From assembly GCA_024635795.1 (NCBI GenBank), contig JAGXIH010000005.1, forward strand, positions 34,483-98,482: a stretch of DNA of 64,000 bases. Direction: 5' to 3'. Under the pieces are notes generated by a model that saw only the letters and a list, made by a program, of their open reading frames with translations, was not told where the DNA came from and did not search any database. Positions 57,293 through 64,000 of the stretch are shown piece after piece (position 1 is the stretch's first letter; every line of letters begins with the position of its first letter). Source of the stretch: Salegentibacter sp. Lineage in GTDB: Bacteria > Bacteroidota > Bacteroidia > Flavobacteriales > Flavobacteriaceae. Position numbers and translations under genes: made by a program.

Positions 57293-58462
57293 ATGTTAGA
57301 AATCAAATTATATCCATTAAGACACCGTGGAGCCTTGCATATTGCGGTGTCTTTTCCTTTTAATATGGAGCTTAACCAGGAAGTAGGAAAGGTACCCGGG
57401 ATACGCTGGAGCAGGACTAAGCGCTGCTATTATTTGCCTTTTTCCCAACAAAACAAAAGCAAACTATTCAAGGTACTCAAAACTAAGGGCAGGTATATAG
57501 ACTACTCGGCGCTAGCGGGAGTTAAGCCGGAAGTGCCTGTTAAAAAAGCGATACCGTTGAATAAGCAAAACCAGGAATTGCTGGACACTTATCTTTCTTA
57601 TTTGAAGGGGAAGCGTTATAGCGGAAGCACCCTACGGACTTATAAAAGTTTTATAGAAAAGTTTTTGCTGAGCCTTAAAAAGCCGGTTGAAGAACTTACC
57701 AACCGGGACCTGGAGTTATACTTTGAGCGGGAGATCGCGGGGAGGAATTATGCAATAAGCACCCACCGGCAGTGCGTGAGCGCTCTAAAGCATTTTGCCA
57801 GCTTGCAGCAATTACCAGAGCTGGAGGCTGAAGTAATAAACACCCCCAGGAAAGACAATAGCCTTCCTACGGTTTTGTCTAAAGAAGAAGTAATAGACCT
57901 GCTGCGTGCCACACGCAACCTTAAGCACCGGGCTTTATTTGCCTTATTGTATGCATCGGGCCTGCGGGTTGGGGAAGCTTTAAACCTAAAATTAAACGCC
58001 ATAGATATAGATCGCCGGCAGATTATTATAAGAAATGCTAAGGGAAGAAAAGACCGTTTTGTGACGATGGCCGAAAGTTTTATACCCCTGTTGCTGAATT
58101 ACCTGGATACCTACCGGCCAAAGAGTTATTTCGTAGAGGGTGCCAATGGCGGTCAATATTCCGGGTCCAGTGTTAGGGCGGCTCTAAGGCAGGCATGCAG
58201 GCAGGCAGGTCTTAAAAAGCGTGTTACTCCGCATAGTTTGCGACATTCGTATGCCACGCATATGCTGGAGAACGGGATAGACATCAGGTATATCCAAAGC
58301 TTACTGGGTCATTCCAGACCGGAGACTACGATGATCTATACGCATGTTACTCAAAAAGACCTGATGCAAATAAGAAGTCCATTGGACGAGACTCTTAAAT
58401 CCTTAGCTAAGTCGGATAAAAATAAAAGCAATCCACGCCTATCCCGGAATAACCTGGATTGA
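57293..58462 (+). CDS. Tyrosine recombinase, IntI-like C-terminus with extra N-terminal domain
   Basis: 389 residues. An N-terminal domain (about 1-80, RWSRTKRCYYLPFSQQNKSKLFKVLK) typical of a Bacteroidota integrase group precedes the core-binding SAM-like domain (about 85-185). Catalytic residues: Arg in SGLRVGE (about 225), Lys in KGRKDR, HSLRH (about 313-317), GHSRPETTMIYTHV with Tyr about 350. The end IYTHVTQKDLMQIRSPLD resembles integron integrases (YTHV...RSPLD), but the IntI-specific extra helix before HSLRH is absent. All catalytic residues are intact. Followed directly by broken higBA and, 2 kb on, by cassette-like DNA on the same strand. Confidence 0.88.
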   Translation: MLEIKLYPLRHRGALHIAVSFPFNMELNQEVGKVPGIRWSRTKRCYYLPFSQQNKSKLFKVLKTKGRYIDYSALAGVKPEVPVKKAIPLNKQNQELLDTYLSYLKGKRYSGSTLRTYKSFIEKFLLSLKKPVEELTNRDLELYFEREIAGRNYAISTHRQCVSALKHFASLQQLPELEAEVINTPRKDNSLPTVLSKEEVIDLLRATRNLKHRALFALLYASGLRVGEALNLKLNAIDIDRRQIIIRNAKGRKDRFVTMAESFIPLLLNYLDTYRPKSYFVEGANGGQYSGSSVRAALRQACRQAGLKKRVTPHSLRHSYATHMLENGIDIRYIQSLLGHSRPETTMIYTHVTQKDLMQIRSPLDETLKSLAKSDKNKSNPRLSRNNLD

Positions 58463-58618
58463 AAGTGTATTACTTTGAAAGACAAAAGAATTATCTTTAA
58501 AATAAAAGAAAACAGTTACAGACTGATTGTAAAATTCAACTTTGAATACCAAATCGGTTGGATACGGTTTATAGGCACTCATGCAGAGTATGATAAAATA
58601 AATGCAAATACAATTTAA
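58463..58618 (+). pseudogene. higB: HigB toxin remnant (5' truncated)
   Basis: From the TTG at 58475 the frame encodes LKDKRIIFKIKENSYRLIVK... and then IRFIGTHAEYDKINANTI, the C-terminal half of HigB-family mRNA interferases. The first 45 or so residues are missing; the sequence before it is the end of the recombinase gene, in the same frame and without a gap. This looks like a recombination junction within 58462-58475. Confidence 0.8.
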
Positions 58619-58619
58619 A

Positions 58620-59072
58620 ATGAAAATAAAACCAATTAGAAACGAAGACGATTATCAAAATGCTCTTATGCGACTAGAGGAAATTTTTGATGCAAAAAGA
58701 GGAACCGATGAGGGTGATGAATTGGAAATATTATCCATTTTAATTGACAATTACGAAGACGAACAGTTTCACATAGAAATGCCGGATCCTATTGAAGCAA
58801 TTAAATTCAGGATGGAACAATTAGGATGAAACCAGCAAGCTGCTGGACCCAAACAAGGATAAATGCAGTAGTATGATTATAAATTCAGGCCTGATTCCCA
58901 AATTTCAGTGAAAATTAATGCAGATAAAACAAAAGACCTGGCAGAAATCTTTGGTTTCAAAAGCAGAGTGAGTGAGATCTTAAATAAAAAAAGGAAACTA
59001 ACCCTGGAAATGGTAAGAAAACTAAATACCACACTACATATTCCAACAGAAGTTCTGATCCAGGATTATTAG
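58620..59072 (+). pseudogene. higA: HigA antitoxin, split by a ~100-bp insert
   Basis: First part 58620-58829 encodes MKIKPIRNEDDYQNALMRLEE ... DPIEAIKFRMEQLG, the complete N-terminal HigA region, then a stop. The missing HTH resumes at about 58933-59072: KDLAEIFGFKSRVSEILNKK ... LHIPTEVLIQDY. Between them lie about 100 nt starting with hairpin CCAGCA-AGC-TGCTGG and containing several stops. Antitoxin presumably inactive; a 75-residue N-terminal product could still be made. Confidence 0.8.
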
Positions 59073-59245
59073 ATGAAATAAATTTAGAGTTTTACCCAGG
59101 CTTCAAACCTGTTTTTTTCCGAAGAAGGAAGATAAGCACACAATTATTTACCTGTGAGGAGCAGAAGCAGTAATGTGCGTAGGTATTTTAGAATATGGAG
59201 TAACTTGCTAATCATTATTCAAACAATTCACAACAAGCTGTAAAT
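59073..59245. other. Intergenic, no recognised feature
   Basis: Spacer between higA remnant and the glycosyltransferase gene; no ORF or clear promoter seen. Confidence 0.5.
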
Positions 59246-60262
59246 ATGAAAATCGCAATCCTCTCTCCTATCGCCTGGCGAACGCCCCCGGTAAAGTACG
59301 GGCCCTGGGAGCAGGTTGCTTCAAATATTGCCGAAGGTCTTGTAGAGCGTAACATAGACGTTACTTTATTTGCGACCGGAAATTCTATCACAAAAGGCAA
59401 ACTGGAAGCTGTTTCAGAAAATGCCTGGGCCGAGGATGCACAGATGGACCCCAAGGTTTGGGAATGTCTTCATATCAGCAATTTGATGGAACAGGCAGAC
59501 AAATTTGATTTAATACATAACCACTTCGATTTTCTTCCGCTTAGCTATTCCAGGCTCATCAAACCCCCTATGCTTACTACCATACACGGGTTTTCTTCAG
59601 AAAAAATACTCGAGGTATATAAAAAGTATAACACTACCGCTTATTATGTCTCCATCAGCAATTCAGACCGCAATAAGGCGCTGGATTATGTGGCTACGGT
59701 ATATAATGGTGTTGATGAGAATGAATTTAGCTTTAAGGAAAGATCAGAGGATTATTTGTTGTTTTTTGGCAGAATTCATCCCGAGAAGGGAACTCTTGAA
59801 GCTATTGAGATCGCCAAAAAATCGGGGCGAAGGCTGATCATTTCGGGCTTAATCCAGGACCAGGAATATTTTGACAGCAAGGTAAAGCCGTTGATTAACG
59901 ATGATGATATTGTATTTGTGGGTAATTCGGGGCCGAGAGAAAGAGATCAACTTATGGGGGGAGCTTATGCCCTGTTACATCCCATAAGCTTTAGAGAGCC
60001 TTTTGGGTTAAGCGTTGCAGAAGCTATGCTGTGCGGAACCCCGGTTATTGCATTCAACCTGGGCTCTATGCCAGAATTGATAATTCACGAAAAAACCGGT
60101 TTTCTCGTGGATAGCATTGCGGAAGCCGCAGAAGCAGTTGGTAACATAGCTTCGATAAGCAGAAAGTTTTGCCGGGAATGGGCGGTTTCTAAATTTAGCA
60201 GGAAAGAAATGATCGATGGCTATTTAGCGGTATATGAGCGCATATTAAACCCAGGGAATTAG
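59246..60262 (+). CDS. GT4 family glycosyltransferase
   Basis: 338 residues, GT-B fold. N-terminal MKIAILSPIAWRTPPVKYGPWEQVASNIAEGL with the glycine-rich acceptor loop, FDLIHNHFDFLPL (about 89), linker VYNGVDENEF, and donor domain LLFFGRIHPEKGTLEAIEIAKKSGRRL (about 170) and EPFGLSVAEAMLCGTPVIAFNLGSMPE (about 248) with the conserved E-x7-E. This subgroup is often beside mannosyl-oligosaccharide genes. Here it sits alone inside the accessory region; base composition still resembles the core genome. Confidence 0.9.
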   Translation: MKIAILSPIAWRTPPVKYGPWEQVASNIAEGLVERNIDVTLFATGNSITKGKLEAVSENAWAEDAQMDPKVWECLHISNLMEQADKFDLIHNHFDFLPLSYSRLIKPPMLTTIHGFSSEKILEVYKKYNTTAYYVSISNSDRNKALDYVATVYNGVDENEFSFKERSEDYLLFFGRIHPEKGTLEAIEIAKKSGRRLIISGLIQDQEYFDSKVKPLINDDDIVFVGNSGPRERDQLMGGAYALLHPISFREPFGLSVAEAMLCGTPVIAFNLGSMPELIIHEKTGFLVDSIAEAAEAVGNIASISRKFCREWAVSKFSRKEMIDGYLAVYERILNPGN

Positions 60263-60458
60263 CACCTGATACAGCGTATTATCTAGCTTCAGATACGGCG
60301 GGACCTGGCAGGTATTTAATGAATGATAAATAGCGTACTAAGATTTCGGCTAACGAGCTTCCCTAAATTCTTAAGGGAATCGTATAAAAATCAACAAAAC
60401 CTGCGTTTATCCCGAATTTATTTATGTTAAAAGTGTATATTGCTGCGGATATAACTAG
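60263..60458. other. Region left of first cassette; possible attI-like or old attC arm
   Basis: About 200 nt without genes. A hairpin TTCCCT...AGGGAA lies around 60359-60380. The end GGATATAACTAG before the TTGCCCAC boundary resembles the right arm of the attC-like site at 62580-62592 (CATATACGGAGCCG before TTGG). A full complementary left arm was not found. Confidence 0.4.
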
Positions 60459-60489
60459 TTGCCCACAATTAAACCAAACATTGAGAATT

Positions 60490-60900
60490 ATGAGAAAAAC
60501 ACTATTATTATTAACATTTATTACTTTAAATTCAATCTGTTATAGCCAAGTTGTTAAATTTAAAATATCTTCAGTTTCTTTTAAAAATTACGATGAAAAA
60601 ATAGGTCAATGGGAAGATTGGACAGAAATTGAAGAAGTTGATATTCTTGGAACTATTGATGTCGATAATGACCGAATAAGAATTTTTTCAAAATCAGAGC
60701 AGAATTATGATGTTATAGAAAATAAAGGAAAAAGAACTGATAATGATGGCGATGATATTATAGAATGGATTTGTGTTAATGAAGATGGAATGAAGTGTGG
60801 CGTAAGATTAGTAACATTAAATTCCCGCAACGGACGAAAACAGCTTTATGTAGATTTCAATAATTTTTACATACTTTACAATATTTATTTCCTTGATTAA
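60490..60900 (+). CDS. Secreted protein, unknown (cassette 1)
   Basis: 136 residues from the ATG MRKTLLLLTFITLNSICYSQ, a clean signal peptide; an upstream in-frame ATG would cross the cassette boundary and is rejected. Mature part VVKFKISSVSFKNYDEKIGQWEDW ... VDILGTIDVDNDRIRIFS ... EWICVNEDGMKCGVRLVTL is beta-rich with two cysteines, no family recognised. It starts 31 nt inside the cassette, as is usual for cassette genes. Lower G+C and A/T-ending codons suggest transfer. Confidence 0.7.
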   Translation: MRKTLLLLTFITLNSICYSQVVKFKISSVSFKNYDEKIGQWEDWTEIEEVDILGTIDVDNDRIRIFSKSEQNYDVIENKGKRTDNDGDDIIEWICVNEDGMKCGVRLVTLNSRNGRKQLYVDFNNFYILYNIYFLD

Positions 60901-60945
60901 TTATGCACGGCCAATAATTACTAATAAACTGTAAACCATTCGCAA

Positions 60946-62391
60946 ATGAAAAATATTTTATATCTTTTAATTATTTCTATTGTATTTGGATGCGCTGAAA
61001 AACCACCTGAACCGACTGAATTATACAATGATTACCGAAAGAGTGTTGCATTGATAAAAAACTCATACTATTTCCAAACTACGCTTGATAATGGTTTTGA
61101 ATTCTTTTACACAATTGAGAATAACGAACCGATTTTTTTCGATGAAGAAGAAGATGCTATTGCAAATGCTGGCGTTAGTTATGGTACAGGTTTTTTCATT
61201 TCATCAACTGGCGAATTAGCTACAAATCGACACGTTGTTTATCCAAGTCAAGAAACGACTTCAATTTCAGAAGGCATTAATAACTATCTGAACGATATCA
61301 AATACAAATTAAAAAAGTTAATCAATGAAACACAAAATGAGAATAGCAAATTAGCTGATGCTTATAATGAATATTATGATTACCTTGATTACGATAGAAA
61401 AACTGAATTAAAGGATGAATATGCAAATCGAAAAAATGAAATAATAGAATTAGAACAATATTTAGAGAATTTAGATTTCAATCCTAACAATACAACTACA
61501 GAATTAAAAAGAATATTTTTAGGTATTGCACTCGATGATACTCACGTTACATCAGCAAATGATTTCATTGAGTGTGTAGCAGTAAAAAAATCGGATGTAG
61601 AAGAAATCGATTTGGCAATTATTCAAATTAAAAATAAAACCACACCGTCTTCAGCCACAAAGGTTTTTAATTTAAAAGATATAACTTTAAAAAAAGAACT
61701 TGCTTTAAATGACAAAGTCTATATGATTGGCTTTAATCACGGAATTGAATTAGCTAATACTGGAAATGGAATTAAATCACAATTTACACAAGGAACTATA
61801 ACTCAAGACCCAGACCAAAATAAAATACTCTATTCTATACCAACATTACCAGGTTCGAGCGGAAGTCCAATTATAGACGAATGGGGAAATTTAGTTGCTG
61901 TCAATTTCGCTAAAACGGGCGATTTTCAAGGATTTAGTTTTGGAATTCCATCTTTAGCTTTAAACAATCTTTATTCAAATTCAAACTATTCCAATTCATA
62001 TAAAGAAAGTGTACCTGTTAACACAAACACCAACAGGACAGTTAAAGAAATAAATTATTCCCAAAACATACGAGATTTTTTAAAAGCAGAAGAAAAAAGA
62101 GATTTTGATATAATTTATGGCTATTTATCACCAAAATTTAGCCGGTATTATGACATAAATGACCCAAGCTATTCTAAACTTAAAAACCGCTATGAATACC
62201 TTTGGGGTTTTACTTCCAATTCAAAAAACTATGTGAAGTCAATCGAGAAAATTAACGATTTCATTTATGATTTGAACACTGAATACACATATTATAATCA
62301 TCGTAAGGAACAAGAATTTACTGTAAATAGTACTGTTCGATTTCTGTTCGATGATAATGGAAAAATCATTGAAACTTACGGCGTTGAATAA
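60946..62391 (+). CDS. Trypsin-like serine protease lipoprotein (cassette 1)
   Basis: 481 residues. Lipobox in LIISIVFGC (Cys about 16). Chymotrypsin-fold residues: His in ATNRHVV (about 95), Asp in EIDLAIIQI (about 221) and Ser in LPGSSGSPIIDEWGNLVAVNFAKTG (about 304), with GTGFFISSTGEL before the His. A charged helical insertion (about 115-175) separates strands. A further C-terminal domain (about 365-481, RDFDIIYGYLSPKFSRYYD) is an NTF2-like or unknown module. Probably a periplasmic, DegP-like or effector-type protease without PDZ. Its stop lies 6 nt before the attC-like site. Confidence 0.85.
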   Translation: MKNILYLLIISIVFGCAEKPPEPTELYNDYRKSVALIKNSYYFQTTLDNGFEFFYTIENNEPIFFDEEEDAIANAGVSYGTGFFISSTGELATNRHVVYPSQETTSISEGINNYLNDIKYKLKKLINETQNENSKLADAYNEYYDYLDYDRKTELKDEYANRKNEIIELEQYLENLDFNPNNTTTELKRIFLGIALDDTHVTSANDFIECVAVKKSDVEEIDLAIIQIKNKTTPSSATKVFNLKDITLKKELALNDKVYMIGFNHGIELANTGNGIKSQFTQGTITQDPDQNKILYSIPTLPGSSGSPIIDEWGNLVAVNFAKTGDFQGFSFGIPSLALNNLYSNSNYSNSYKESVPVNTNTNRTVKEINYSQNIRDFLKAEEKRDFDIIYGYLSPKFSRYYDINDPSYSKLKNRYEYLWGFTSNSKNYVKSIEKINDFIYDLNTEYTYYNHRKEQEFTVNSTVRFLFDDNGKIIETYGVE

Positions 62392-62397
62392 ATAACT

Positions 62398-62592
62398 GTG
62401 GGCAACATTGTATATAAAAAATAGCGCAAGTCTTTGCTAACACTAAGGTTTGGGAGTTTTTGGAAAGTCGCCAAATTTTTAAATTTGACGATTTCCAAGT
62501 AAAAAGATAAATAGTAAAATTTAAAAATTCGGCTTGTGTTAATCCGAAAAGTAACAGCTTATTTTCAGCGCTACTTTTCATATACGGAGCCG
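62398..62592 (+). other. attC-like recombination site of cassette 1 (about 200 nt)
   Basis: Left arm GTGGGCAAC (62398-62406), then ATT, GTATAT, A-rich, TAGCGC (62422-62427). Right arm GCGCTA (62568-62573), CTTTTC, ATATAC (62580-62585), GGAGCC and G at 62592. Arms pair: GTATAT/ATATAC and TAGCGC/GCGCTA. When circularised, GTGGGCAAC also pairs with GTTGCCCAC. The inside has a 16-bp hairpin at 62462-62496 and AACACtAAG/CTTGTGTT pairing. Core boxes do not follow the proteobacterial GTTRRRY beyond GTTG. Confidence 0.65.
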
Positions 62593-62629
62593 TTGGTAGC
62601 CATTTGACAACAATATAGCGTTAAAATTA

Positions 62630-62697
62630 AAGGTTCAAAAAAGAAAGATTGTAAATTAATACAATAAAAGCCACTCACTTAAAAGAGATAGAACCTT
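62630..62697 (+). other. Nested inverted repeats in cassette 2 leader
   Basis: Outer pair AAGGTTC (62630) / GAACCTT (62691) and inner hairpin ATTGTA-AATTAA-TACAAT (62648-62665). It could form an RNA structure or protein-binding site; no match to a known riboswitch. Confidence 0.4.
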
Positions 62698-62731
62698 AAG
62701 AGTAAACAAAATATTCAAATTAAATGACTAC

Positions 62732-62746
62732 TTAGGTCGAACCTAA
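62732..62746. promoter_or_regulatory. Operator-like palindrome
   Basis: TTAGGT-CGA-ACCTAA, a perfect 6-bp inverted repeat centred about 44 nt upstream of the predicted start of transcription of the cassette 2 genes. Confidence 0.4.
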
Positions 62747-62770
62747 CCGCCCAAGACCTTAATGGGGCAT

Positions 62771-62778
62771 TAATTTTG
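62771..62778 (+). promoter_or_regulatory. TAnnTTTG (-7) promoter element in cassette 2
   Basis: TAATTTTG, 8 bases before the ATG of the small secreted protein; predicts an almost leaderless transcript and shows the cassette brings its own promoter. Confidence 0.5.
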
Positions 62779-62785
62779 TATAATT

Positions 62786-62989
62786 ATGAAAAAGATTCTT
62801 TCTTCATTACTAATTGTTGTATTTATGCTTGCAAGTACACAAACATATGCTTGGAAGCTTTTTGGATCTGAAACGTATGAAATTGTAAGTTCAGACGGTT
62901 GTACCGTAACAACTTACAAAAAAACCTATTTTTTAGGAATTAGAACTTCAGTAGATCCACAAAATGTTGAATATGTATGCTTTGACTAG
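62786..62989 (+). CDS. Small secreted protein, unknown (cassette 2)
   Basis: 67 residues; signal peptide MKKILSSLLIVVFMLASTQTYA (cut after TYA), leaving a 45-residue mature peptide WKLFGSETYEIVSSDGCTVTT... with two cysteines (DGCTV and YVCFD) that could form a disulfide. No family recognised. Followed by a hairpin terminator. Confidence 0.7.
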   Translation: MKKILSSLLIVVFMLASTQTYAWKLFGSETYEIVSSDGCTVTTYKKTYFLGIRTSVDPQNVEYVCFD

Positions 62990-63002
62990 CTATACCTAAA
63001 AT

Positions 63003-63034
63003 GGGATGTGCTTTTAGCACATCCCTAATTTAAA
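63003..63034 (+). terminator. Hairpin terminator between cassette 2 genes
   Basis: GGGATGTGCT-TTT-AGCACATCCC, perfect 10-bp stem, followed by TAATTTAAAT (weak U-tract); may attenuate rather than stop transcription into the next gene. Confidence 0.6.
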
Positions 63035-63039
63035 TAATC

Positions 63040-63843
63040 ATGAAAAAATATATATTTCTACTATTTACATTTATAACAATTTCTGCTTTTAGTCAAAAGG
63101 AGATATTTATTTTAGATTCACTTTCTAAAAAACCAATTGAATATGCTAATGTAAACTTCATAGGTTCAGATAAAGGGACTTACTCAAATACAAATGGTAT
63201 TAGTAAAATACCCCTTGAGATTAAAAAAATTTCTATATCGAGTGTAGGGTATGAAAAAAAAATTATTTCTAAATTTAGTGATACTATTTTTTTAACCCCT
63301 AAGGTAATAGAGTTACCTGATGTTTTTATCAGACCTAACTCAAAATCAGTTTTAGGTAAAGAAAAAAGCAAATTATATATTGGTTTTAATTCAAATTCCA
63401 AAAGTGTGATTTTTGTTAAAAAAATTATCTTAAATGATAATGTAAATCTTCTTAAAGCACACTTTGATTTAATAAATAATAAGGTATCTAAAAAGTTTAG
63501 ATTATTAATTTTTGATGTAAATAAAAAGAATAAGCCAGGCAATAATATTTTGAATACAGATATAATTTCTGAAATTAAATCTAATGAAAAAAATATAACT
63601 ATAGAATTAAACGATTTTGATATCAGTTTGAGAAAAGGAATTTATTTTTTAGGTATTGAAATTTTTGAATTAACAAATGAAAATAAAGAACCACCTATTA
63701 AAATAGGATGTTACAAATCTTCAAATAAAAATAAAAGTTTTTTTAAGCCAGTATTTAATGATGATTCTGATTGGAATACAATTAAAACTTATAATGGAAA
63801 AAAAGATTACTCATTTAATTTTTACTTATCAATTCAAAAGTAG
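63040..63843 (+). CDS. Exported protein with carboxypeptidase-regulatory-like domain (cassette 2)
   Basis: 267 residues. Signal peptide MKKYIFLLFTFITISAFSQ; then IFILDSLSKKPIEYANVNFIGSDKGTYSNTNGISKIPLEIKKISISSVGYEKK (about 22-80), a CarboxypepD_reg-like/CnaB-type domain as found at the N-terminus of TonB receptors, but here no barrel follows. The rest (about 110-267) is a second beta domain with no match. Very AT-rich. Its stop is 10 nt before the attC-like left arm. Confidence 0.75.
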   Translation: MKKYIFLLFTFITISAFSQKEIFILDSLSKKPIEYANVNFIGSDKGTYSNTNGISKIPLEIKKISISSVGYEKKIISKFSDTIFLTPKVIELPDVFIRPNSKSVLGKEKSKLYIGFNSNSKSVIFVKKIILNDNVNLLKAHFDLINNKVSKKFRLLIFDVNKKNKPGNNILNTDIISEIKSNEKNITIELNDFDISLRKGIYFLGIEIFELTNENKEPPIKIGCYKSSNKNKSFFKPVFNDDSDWNTIKTYNGKKDYSFNFYLSIQK

Positions 63844-63853
63844 TAGTAAAAAC

Positions 63854-63862
63854 GGCTACCAA
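63854..63862 (+). other. Left core of cassette 2 attC-like site, cut by intron
   Basis: GGCTACCAA, complementary to the cassette's first nine bases. The next base should be C but is T, the last intron base read on the plus strand. Confidence 0.6.
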
Positions 63863-64000
63863 TCGAGTAGACGGCTCCGCCGTTAATTGACGGAGTGCGC
63901 CTCTCACACCACCGTACGTACGGGTCTCGTATACGGCGGTTCATAATCCATCTTTTCAATCGCTCTTTACACCAATTGAAACTATTTCATACTTTATGAA
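63863..64000 (-). mobile_element. Group II intron 3' end (class IIC-like), runs off window
   Basis: On the minus strand: domain V at 63940-63908 (ACCGCCGTA ... TACGGTGGT with a CG bulge and short upper helix TACG/CGTA) carrying a CGC triad, then a GTGTGAGAGG linker, domain VI hairpin (63902-63871, CTCCG.../...CGGAG) and the end CTACTCGA, followed by the exon TTGGTAGCCG. The minus frame from 64000 to about 63957 (FIKYEIVSIGVKSD then stop) may be the end of the intron-encoded reverse transcriptase; that is uncertain. The 5' part is outside. Confidence 0.78.

What the first reader, a model, noticed from the sequence alone, without database searches (positions are those of the whole stretch)
60459..63862. 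Integron-like gene cassettes in a flavobacterium, with ends complementary to their own attC-like sites
Cassette 1 starts G|TTGCCCACA and, 6 nt after its last stop codon, carries TGTGGGCAAC. Cassette 2 starts G|TTGGTAGCC and, 10 nt after its last stop, carries GGCTACCAA. In integrons this exact relation arises because the first bases of an inserted cassette come from its own attC. Two independent perfect 9-10 bp matches in the predicted places are very unlikely by chance. The core boxes do not fit GTTRRRY and the site is about 200 nt, so standard attC models may miss it. If correct this is a cassette system of Bacteroidota not captured by the classical definition.
Basis: partly seen in the sequence, partly recalled or inferred. 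Interest (0 to 1): 0.93.

Follow-up and report, generated by a model that had tools for sequence, protein, structure and literature searches.

The report
Unrecognised gene-cassette system of flavobacteria
Most sampled relatives of this bacterium (likely flavobacteria) carry the end sites of gene cassettes, often in rows and in many genomes with a recombinase that lacks the hallmark part of known integron enzymes yet is predicted to collect and shuffle the cassettes as integrons do, so a large route of gene exchange has likely been overlooked.

Summary
Cassette 1 (60459-62592) begins G|TTGCCCACA and carries the exact reverse complement in its own 3' hairpin site. Cassette 2 shows the same relation, but its site is cut by a group II intron at the contig end. 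The site belongs to a large family: a covariance model finds it in 172 of 199 same-family genomes and in 0 of 18 chosen non-Bacteroidota genomes. In 50 of 79 consecutive site pairs the cassette start matches its own site over 8 or more bases (2 of 79 match the preceding site; shuffles average 2.4). Relatives of the window's tyrosine recombinase (57293-58462) have an attI-like box just after the gene (39 of 43; control windows 10 of 1018); in 9 of 29 loci, the window included, the first cassette starts exactly there. Identical cassettes recur junction to junction at unlike places. The recombinase lacks the roughly 40-residue IntI insert (IntI model in 0 of 199 family genomes), and only 8 of 79 starts fit GTTRRRY. 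This works like an integron but is not an IntI integron: a new variant. Recombination itself is inferred, not shown.

The parts
57293..58462 (+). Tyrosine recombinase (389 aa): about 90-residue N-terminal extension, SAM-like domain, catalytic domain; predicted cassette integrase, lacks the IntI insert
   Evidence: PF00589 1.2e-39 and PF13495 4.2e-12; NF040815 227.8 bits over cut-off 220, TIGR02249 194.2 under cut-off 265; residues 210-246 of IntI4 unaligned; R225, K250, H314, R317, H340, Y349 invariant in 34 aligned relatives (their catalytic role is recalled)
58463..60363 (+). Segment between recombinase and attI-like site: small ORFs 58602-58829 (no family) and 58908-59072 (HTH-like, under the Pfam cut-off) and a GT4-type glycosyltransferase 59246-60262; in the sister genome G031 attI follows the recombinase directly
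60364..60458 (+). attI-like site; its upstream part is a remnant of a second recombinase 3' end, then AAAAGTGTATATTGCTGCGGATATAACTAG with junction G60458|T60459
   Evidence: 105-bp match 60364-60468 (80%, E 2e-21) to the recombinase 3' end plus attI-like box of G031; same kind of box after recombinase stop codons in relatives
60459..62592 (+). Cassette 1: two genes plus its own attC-like site
   Evidence: start equals the reverse complement of its own R'' over 10 of 10 bases
60490..60900 (+). Cassette 1 gene 1, 136 aa from this start, signal-like N terminus by eye; no family over cut-off
60946..62391 (+). Cassette 1 gene 2, 481 aa, trypsin-like peptidase domain (PF13365, 8e-16), lipoprotein-like N terminus by eye
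62397..62406 (+). R'' box TGTGGGCAAC of cassette 1
62410..62426 (+). L'' arm GTATATAAAAAATAGCG
62569..62585 (+). L' arm CGCTACTTTTCATATAC
62592..62595 (+). R' core GTTG with junction G62592|T62593
   Evidence: R1 match 62393-62606, 69.4 bits, E 3.1e-14
62593..63861 (+). Cassette 2 (left part): ORFs 62786-62989 (67 aa, no family) and 63040-63843 (267 aa, CarbopepD_reg_2 under cut-off) and part of its R'' box
63854..63861 (+). Interrupted R'' box GGCTACCA of cassette 2
63862..64000 (-). 3' end (domains V and VI) of a group II intron in the R'' box, opposite to the cassettes; runs off the contig
   Evidence: RF00029 39.3 bits, E 2.6e-6, gathering score 40; three copies in this genome, each next to an R''-like box

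Best explanation
This is the start of an integron-like cassette array: two gene cassettes lie behind an attI-like site and would be captured and shuffled by a predicted tyrosine recombinase encoded about 2 kb upstream that lacks the IntI hallmark insert. Shown here by sequence: the recombinase family, the attI-like box just after its gene in most relatives examined, rows of cassettes in the same direction with 3' hairpin sites, cassette starts that match their own site, and near-identical cassettes bounded by the junctions at unlike places. Inferred: the enzyme recombines the folded bottom strand of an incoming cassette's site with the attI-like site at G|TT, so that the first bases of the inserted cassette come from its own site; because it has no I2 helix, it probably tells the strands apart not by extrahelical bases but by the asymmetric spacers (3 against 6 nt) and by two A.C mismatches of the top strand that become G.T pairs in the bottom strand. 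Cassette genes are probably expressed by read-through from the recombinase gene or from a promoter near attI (untested).
For: Cassette starts match their own site in 50 of 79 pairs, the preceding site in 2 of 79. attI-like box within 250 nt of the recombinase stop in 39 of 43 distinct loci, 35 of them at 18-36 nt, against 10 of 1018 control windows (the box was read off these same loci). First detected cassette starts exactly at that box in 9 of 29 distinct loci with a downstream site, window included. Recombinase profile and sites in the 30 family genomes of the phylum sample: 22 both, 7 neither, 1 sites only, 0 recombinase only, p = 3.9e-6 (some of these genomes, G000 among them, gave rows to the profile). 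Same cassette at unlike places: 464 nt at 100% about 1.3 Mb apart in G168; 557-560 nt at four places in G014 (96.6-99.8%); 971 nt at 89% between G163 and G113, different genera; downstream flanks 37-50%, upstream flanks, which are ends of other sites, 43-83%. Longest ORF in site direction in 39 of 51 cassettes, opposite in 3, none of 50 aa in 9. Bottom strand folds better in 115 of 128 detected sites. Stem pairs with changes on both sides. No canonical IntI in 199 family genomes.
Against: No recombination was observed. 29 of 79 pairs do not reach 8 matching bases: 17 of them are over 2 kb apart, where a site may have been missed, and one (L072) is a one-base register slip, but several are short with mismatches inside the box. 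In 20 of 29 loci the first detected cassette does not start at the attI-like box; in 18 of these it follows CCG or ACG, like the R' end of an undetected site, and 2 look spurious. Sites are also found in 112 of 137 family genomes without a close homologue of this recombinase, so other enzymes or cassette-only clusters must exist. In the window itself recombinase and attI are 2 kb apart and only two cassettes are visible. R1 was built from sites first found with the arm pattern.
Confidence: 0.86

Rival explanations
1. Classical cassette cluster without integrase (CALIN): the sites are attC sites spread by canonical IntI enzymes living elsewhere in Bacteroidota, and the nearby recombinase is unrelated.
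For: R1 sites occur in some genomes of other classes that carry canonical IntI (for example G223, G234, G249). IntI1 recombined one of two tested sites of Polaribacter phage P12002L (PMC9892861, passages), a phage in which R1 finds matches (which of them is the tested site was not determined).
Against: Canonical IntI in 0 of 199 family genomes, yet 22-46 sites per genome in five named species. The attI-like box sits beside this recombinase, and 22 of 23 site-bearing family genomes of the phylum sample hold a relative of it.
Confidence: 0.08
2. Dispersed hairpin repeats or terminators, copied as small elements, that happen to flank genes.
For: Site interiors of one class are alike across genomes (mean column identity 70 and 82%), and some genomes show only one or two pattern hits.
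Against: Copying of the hairpin alone does not make a cassette's start match the site at its far end nor carry whole genes junction to junction to new places.
Confidence: 0.03
3. A peel-and-paste (IS200/IS605-like) single-strand transposase or another mobile element uses these hairpins.
For: Folded single-strand ends resemble such elements (recalled); roughly 95-nt palindromic inserts at the junctions of sites in L060, L061 and L063 show that other elements do land there (read by eye).
Against: A recombinase plus attI-like box accompanies the arrays and cassette ends behave as one crossover at G|TT. I did not search the arrays for transposases.
Confidence: 0.03

Closest known systems
Integrons (IntI / attI / attC), e.g. 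chromosomal arrays of Vibrio
   Same: Cassettes in one direction with a 3' hairpin site; junction G|TT; first bases of a cassette match its own site; attI-like site beside a tyrosine recombinase; bottom strand folds better; tens of sites per genome; a group II intron in R'' in the opposite direction
   Different: Recombinase lacks the IntI extra region and scores under the IntI cut-off; core GTTRNNNN rather than GTTRRRY; L arms long and nearly fixed without a one-sided base; attI lies 3' of the recombinase gene; N-terminal extension
Treponema-type integrons with intI transcribed towards attI
   Same: Recombinase gene and cassettes run in the same direction with attI between them (PMC3607928, passages)
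   Different: Treponema uses intI genes; here the enzyme is of the XerA-like type
Archaeal XerA recombinases (NF040815; PDB 5hxy, 4a8e)
   Same: Nearest by profile, by sequence and by predicted fold
   Different: N-terminal extension and a cassette array; three other genomes checked hold XerD over its cut-off and a second Xer-like gene besides, so a chromosome-dimer role is unlikely
Group IIC-attC introns
   Same: Insertion in the R'' box, opposite to the cassettes; the visible 3' side fits GT/T (bottom-strand consensus TTGT/T per PMC7923331, passages)
   Different: Only domains V and VI are visible; the 5' exon and the intron class are unknown
Polaribacter phage P12002L cassette cluster
   Same: Carries sites hit by R1 in a genome with several DNA methyltransferase genes; one of its sites was recombined with attI1 by IntI1 (PMC9892861, passages)
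   Different: Published as a cluster lacking an integrase; whether the tested site is of this class was not determined

Membership tests
Integron (IntI type) | Integrase with the extra IntI domain (alpha-I2 to beta-4,5 region) | tested here: not met
   IntI4 residues 210-246 unaligned; box I to box II 58 residues in the 29 of 34 family members where the motif was read, 100 in the 6 of 20 IntI where it was read; TIGR02249 194.2 under 265; separate clades in the tree
Integron (IntI type) | attI site beside the integrase into which cassettes insert | tested here: met
   Box in 39 of 43 loci; first cassette exactly at it in 9 of 29 loci; insertion itself not shown
Integron (IntI type) | Array of cassettes in one direction, each gene followed by an attC-like hairpin site | tested here: met
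   51 cassettes with matched ends: longest ORF in site direction in 39, opposite in 3, none of 50 aa in 9; 29 of the 39 stops within 15 nt of R''
Integron (IntI type) | R'' RYYYAAC and R' GTTRRRY consensus | tested here: not met
   8 of 79 cassette starts fit GTTRRRY
Integron (IntI type) | First bases of an inserted cassette derive from its own attC | tested here: met
   50 of 79 pairs; the two window cassettes
Integron (IntI type) | Extrahelical bases in the folded bottom-strand L box | tested here: not met
   Arms aligned without a one-sided base, with two opposed A.C positions in the top strand (32 and 12 aligned sites); real structure unknown
Integron (IntI type) | Integrase gene divergent from the cassettes | tested here: not met
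   Same direction in the window and in the loci; Treponema is a known exception
Integron (IntI type) | Site-specific recombination of folded attC bottom strand by the integrase | not testable with these tools
   Needs an assay
XerA-like tyrosine recombinase (NF040815) | Profile score over curated cut-off | tested here: met
   227.8 against 220
Group II intron | Domain V/VI covariance match | tested here: inconclusive
   39.3 bits, E 2.6e-6, just under the gathering score 40
Group IIC-attC intron | Insertion in the R'' box, opposite to the cassettes | tested here: met
   3 of 3 copies in this genome abut R''-like boxes on the visible side
Group IIC-attC intron | Class C ribozyme and intron-encoded protein | not tested
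   Intron runs off the contig; the other copies were not read through

The most novel reading that the evidence does not exclude
A second, independently specialised integron lineage: Bacteroidota recombinases without the I2 helix move cassettes by a folded single strand read through G.T pairs and spacer asymmetry instead of extrahelical bases, form chromosomal superintegron-like arrays in most Flavobacteriaceae, and represent the XerA-like stock from which IntI arose.
Probability: 0.4. Interest if true: 0.95.

Novelty: new variant of a known kind. Interest (0 to 1): 0.88.

Why it matters
The IntegronFinder 2.0 survey names one complete integron in Bacteroidetes proper (Salinibacter ruber; PMC9024848, passages), while sites of this type occur in 172 of 199 family genomes sampled here. 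If right, a large part of a phylum has its own cassette exchange system, with sites also in phage genomes and restriction-modification and other defence-type genes among the cassettes. It also makes an old question testable: how IntI gained the ability to act on folded single strands, since this family has the cassettes and the hairpins without the region that in IntI grips the extrahelical bases.

Tried and rejected
Rfam at gathering scores over the whole window: no match; no tRNA or tmRNA as an integration target. A first gapped arm pattern found nothing because its gap limit was too short for the site. Plasmid collection with the window site: no match. My first site regex was wrong and found only one site; corrected. 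TIGR02249 rang in none of the 14 control genomes, so its absence in the family rests on the phylum sample as positive control (84 of 296 over cut-off). XerC/XerD as the cassette enzyme: they fall outside the clade of IntI and this family (the label XerC is mine, the genes were found with the XerD model). pdb_via ranks XerA first and IntI4, XerH and others within a few Z units, so fold alone does not decide; the N-terminal extension was not searched alone. The tree is small (89 rows; the fork uniting this family has 94/77 support; midpoint root), so a sister relation to IntI is only suggestive. Paper searches for a prior description: for most hits I saw only titles and abstract starts, and none of these describes it; two papers whose passages I saw say in general that intI genes or integrons occur in Bacteroidetes/Chlorobi or Bacteroidota (PMC2426708; PMC8618304). 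Subscription papers and preprints are not covered. IntegronFinder and HattCI could not be run.
Full report
OBSERVATION. Cassette 1 is 60459-62592; its own site has R'' TGTGGGCAAC 62397-62406, arms 62410-62426 and 62569-62585, spacers of 3 and 6 nt, and R' GTTG at 62592. Cassette 2 starts at 62593; its R'' box GGCTACCA (63854-63861) is cut by a group II intron on the minus strand (RF00029, 39.3 bits, E 2.6e-6, gathering score 40). The window ends where contig C13 ends (98482 bases), so the rest is not readable. Copies of the intron end lie at two further places of this genome, C23 and C17; all 3 of 3 copies end next to an R''-like box (GGCTACCA, CCAGCAGGTA, ACTGGGTGCA).

SITE FAMILY. The left-arm pattern with at most one mismatch is in 64 of 199 genomes of the same family; the reversed control pattern gave one hit. 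Sites from these genomes fall into a class of about 122 nt and one of about 190 nt, AAC to junction, with the same arms. The consensus is R'' (NNNYAAC) n3 GTATATAAAAAATAGCG ... CGCTACTTTTCATATAC n6 GTTR NNNN(Y)AAT. Two L-arm pairs are kept through changes on both sides (columns 23/128 in 3 and 31/120 in 5 of 32 rows, probably few events). Two A.C positions of the top strand read G.T in the bottom strand; the bottom strand folds better in 115 of 128 detected sites and in 122 of 128 for the arms alone. The covariance model R1 finds sites in 172 of 199 family genomes at E <= 1e-3 (at most 15 candidates scored per genome), in 94 of 296 of a phylum sample at E <= 1e-4 (at most 10 scored), and, in 28 genomes that I chose from the loci, in 9 of 10 Bacteroidota and 0 of 18 others. 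With up to 113 candidates scored, Mesonia aestuariivivens has 30, Zunongwangia mangrovi 46, Algibacter onchidii 31, Winogradskyella ursingii 26 and Seonamhaeicola aphaedonensis 22 matches; the other Bacteroidota have 0-5.

CASSETTE LOGIC. A two-arm detector built from 43 sites gave no hit in 1.43 Mb of mononucleotide-shuffled loci, both strands counted. Of 79 consecutive site pairs 150-4000 nt apart (duplicates removed), 50 cassette starts match the reverse complement of their own R'' over 8 or more leading bases; 2 match the preceding R''; partner shuffles gave a mean of 2.4 and a maximum of 8. Of the 29 others, 17 are over 2 kb apart, where a site may have been missed; several are short with mismatches. 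Only 8 of 79 starts fit GTTRRRY. Of 51 cassettes with matched ends (median 926 nt), the longest ORF lies in site direction in 39, opposite in 3, and 9 have no ORF of 50 aa; 29 of the 39 stops fall within 15 nt of R''. Among these 39 proteins the family scans find an ApaLI-type restriction enzyme, DNA methylases, type IIG enzymes, an AbiGi-like protein, a Nudix hydrolase and a cation efflux protein (lists capped at 25 families).

MOBILITY. Among 70 cassettes with matched ends (overlapping loci not merged), whole-cassette copies with unlike flanks were found (16 rows, both directions): one of 464 nt, 100% identical, in two regions of G168 about 1.3 Mb apart; one of 557-560 nt at four places of G014 (96.6-99.8%); one of 971 nt, 89% identical, in G163 and G113, which are given as different genera. 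The match covers the cassette to within 6 nt of both junctions; the 60 nt downstream are 37-50% identical and the 60 nt upstream, which are ends of other sites, 43-83%. The window's cassette 1 has no DNA match in G031 (same genus), G111 or G007.

RECOMBINASE AND attI. The window protein 57293-58462 is a tyrosine recombinase of the XerA-like type. Relatives at E <= 1e-70 occur in 62 of 199 family genomes. In 39 of 43 distinct loci with at least 60 nt downstream, a box RTATAACn(A/C)G|TTR (one mismatch allowed) lies within 250 nt of the stop codon, 35 of them at 18-36 nt; 10 of 1018 control windows have it. The box was read off these loci first, so this is a count, not an independent test. In 9 of 29 loci with a detected downstream site (window included) the first cassette, defined by the match to its own R'', starts exactly there; in 18 of the other 20 it follows CCG or ACG like an undetected R' end, and 2 look spurious. 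In named genome loci found separately, 5 of the 6 with at least 43% identity have the box after the recombinase (L230-L234, among them Zunongwangia mangrovi and a Lutibacter MAG; not Mesonia), and none of three more distant ones has it with a TT behind. In the sister genome G031 the box directly follows the stop codon; in the window it lies 1998 bp downstream, directly preceded by a remnant of a second recombinase 3' end (60364-60468, 80% to G031), so a 1.9-kb segment with small ORFs and a glycosyltransferase gene separates the intact gene from attI.

CO-OCCURRENCE. In the 30 family genomes of the phylum sample, a profile of the recombinase (A3, E <= 1e-75) and R1 sites are both present in 22, both absent in 7, sites only in 1, recombinase only in 0 (Fisher p = 3.9e-6; some of these genomes gave rows to A3). 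In the 199-genome family sample the close homologue (E <= 1e-70) is less telling: 60 of 62 with it have sites, but so do 112 of 137 without it (p = 0.003; the 7 unlisted site-negative genomes were inferred by elimination). Some genomes hold shorter relatives that lie divergent from the sites (G001, G234, G242, G249, G319, G349, G365; coordinates).

NOT AN IntI. IntI model TIGR02249: window protein 194 bits under the cut-off 265; 0 of 199 family genomes at E <= 1e-50; 84 of 296 phylum genomes over the cut-off, one of them in the same class, the others only in the same phylum. IntI4 (PDB 2a3v) residues 210-246 are unaligned. That stretch holds Y210, W219, P232, H240 and H241, which contact the extrahelical bases G20'' and T12'' in the IntI complex (PMC3053210, passages; I take the alignment's numbering as the paper's). 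The sites here have no one-sided base in the L arms. The loss of the gripping region and of the bulged bases fits one mechanism, but this is inference. In a tree of 89 sequences IntI forms one clade (100/100) beside this family (94/77), with XerC- and XerD-like genes outside (96/95). The predicted fold (mean pLDDT 82, pTM 0.55, weak at residues 342-355 around the presumed catalytic tyrosine) is closest to XerA and then IntI4 by Foldseek. NCBI names several members 'site-specific tyrosine recombinase/integron integrase', like the NF040815 model.

LITERATURE. [quoted passage not shown] A phage study found a cassette cluster with DNA methyltransferases in Polaribacter phage P12002L; one of two tested sites recombined with attI1 under IntI1, with the bottom strand and not the top. 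R1 matches that phage genome, but I could not tell which match is the tested site. Treponema integrons have the same gene order with a true intI. Group IIC-attC introns insert in R'' at TTGT/T of the bottom strand. Of every paper cited I saw passages only.

MECHANISM. The most likely working: the recombinase binds the folded bottom strand of a cassette's site and the double-stranded attI-like box, cuts at G|TT, and inserts the cassette; reaction between two sites frees it. Shown: the traces such events leave. Not shown: binding, cutting, strand choice and expression.

Noticed in passing
63862-64000 (minus strand); G000 C23:62374-62513 and C17:69307-69447: Group II intron ends, 3 of 3 copies next to R''-like boxes of cassette sites; probably a site-targeting intron like group IIC-attC.
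   Followed up: partly
60364-60468: Remnant of a second recombinase 3' end fused to the attI-like site, leaving a 1.9-kb segment between the intact recombinase and attI.
   Followed up: partly
L079 (G072), sites ending 985 and 9788: Two sites of one genome whose R' is replaced by the same GTCAGACTGTCTAA, probably the end of an element that targets R' (L036 is the second of them).
   Followed up: no
L060, L061, L063: Palindromic inserts of about 95 nt (GATG...CATC) at the junction of otherwise normal sites in three genomes, seen by eye.
   Followed up: no
G001 C13, G234 C33, G242 C44, G249 C4, G319 C7, G349 C35, G365 C17: Short (about 280-335 aa frames) relatives of the recombinase lie divergent from sites of the same type, the classical integron order without a classical IntI beside them.
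   Followed up: partly
L002, L003 (viral contigs); L150 (Polaribacter phage P12002L): Phage contigs carry these sites; in L003 the next unit runs from GTTAGCC to GGCTAAC.
   Followed up: partly
59246-60262: Glycosyltransferase of the GT4 type (nearest NCBIfam model glycosy_Agl16, far below cut-off) between recombinase and attI.
   Followed up: no
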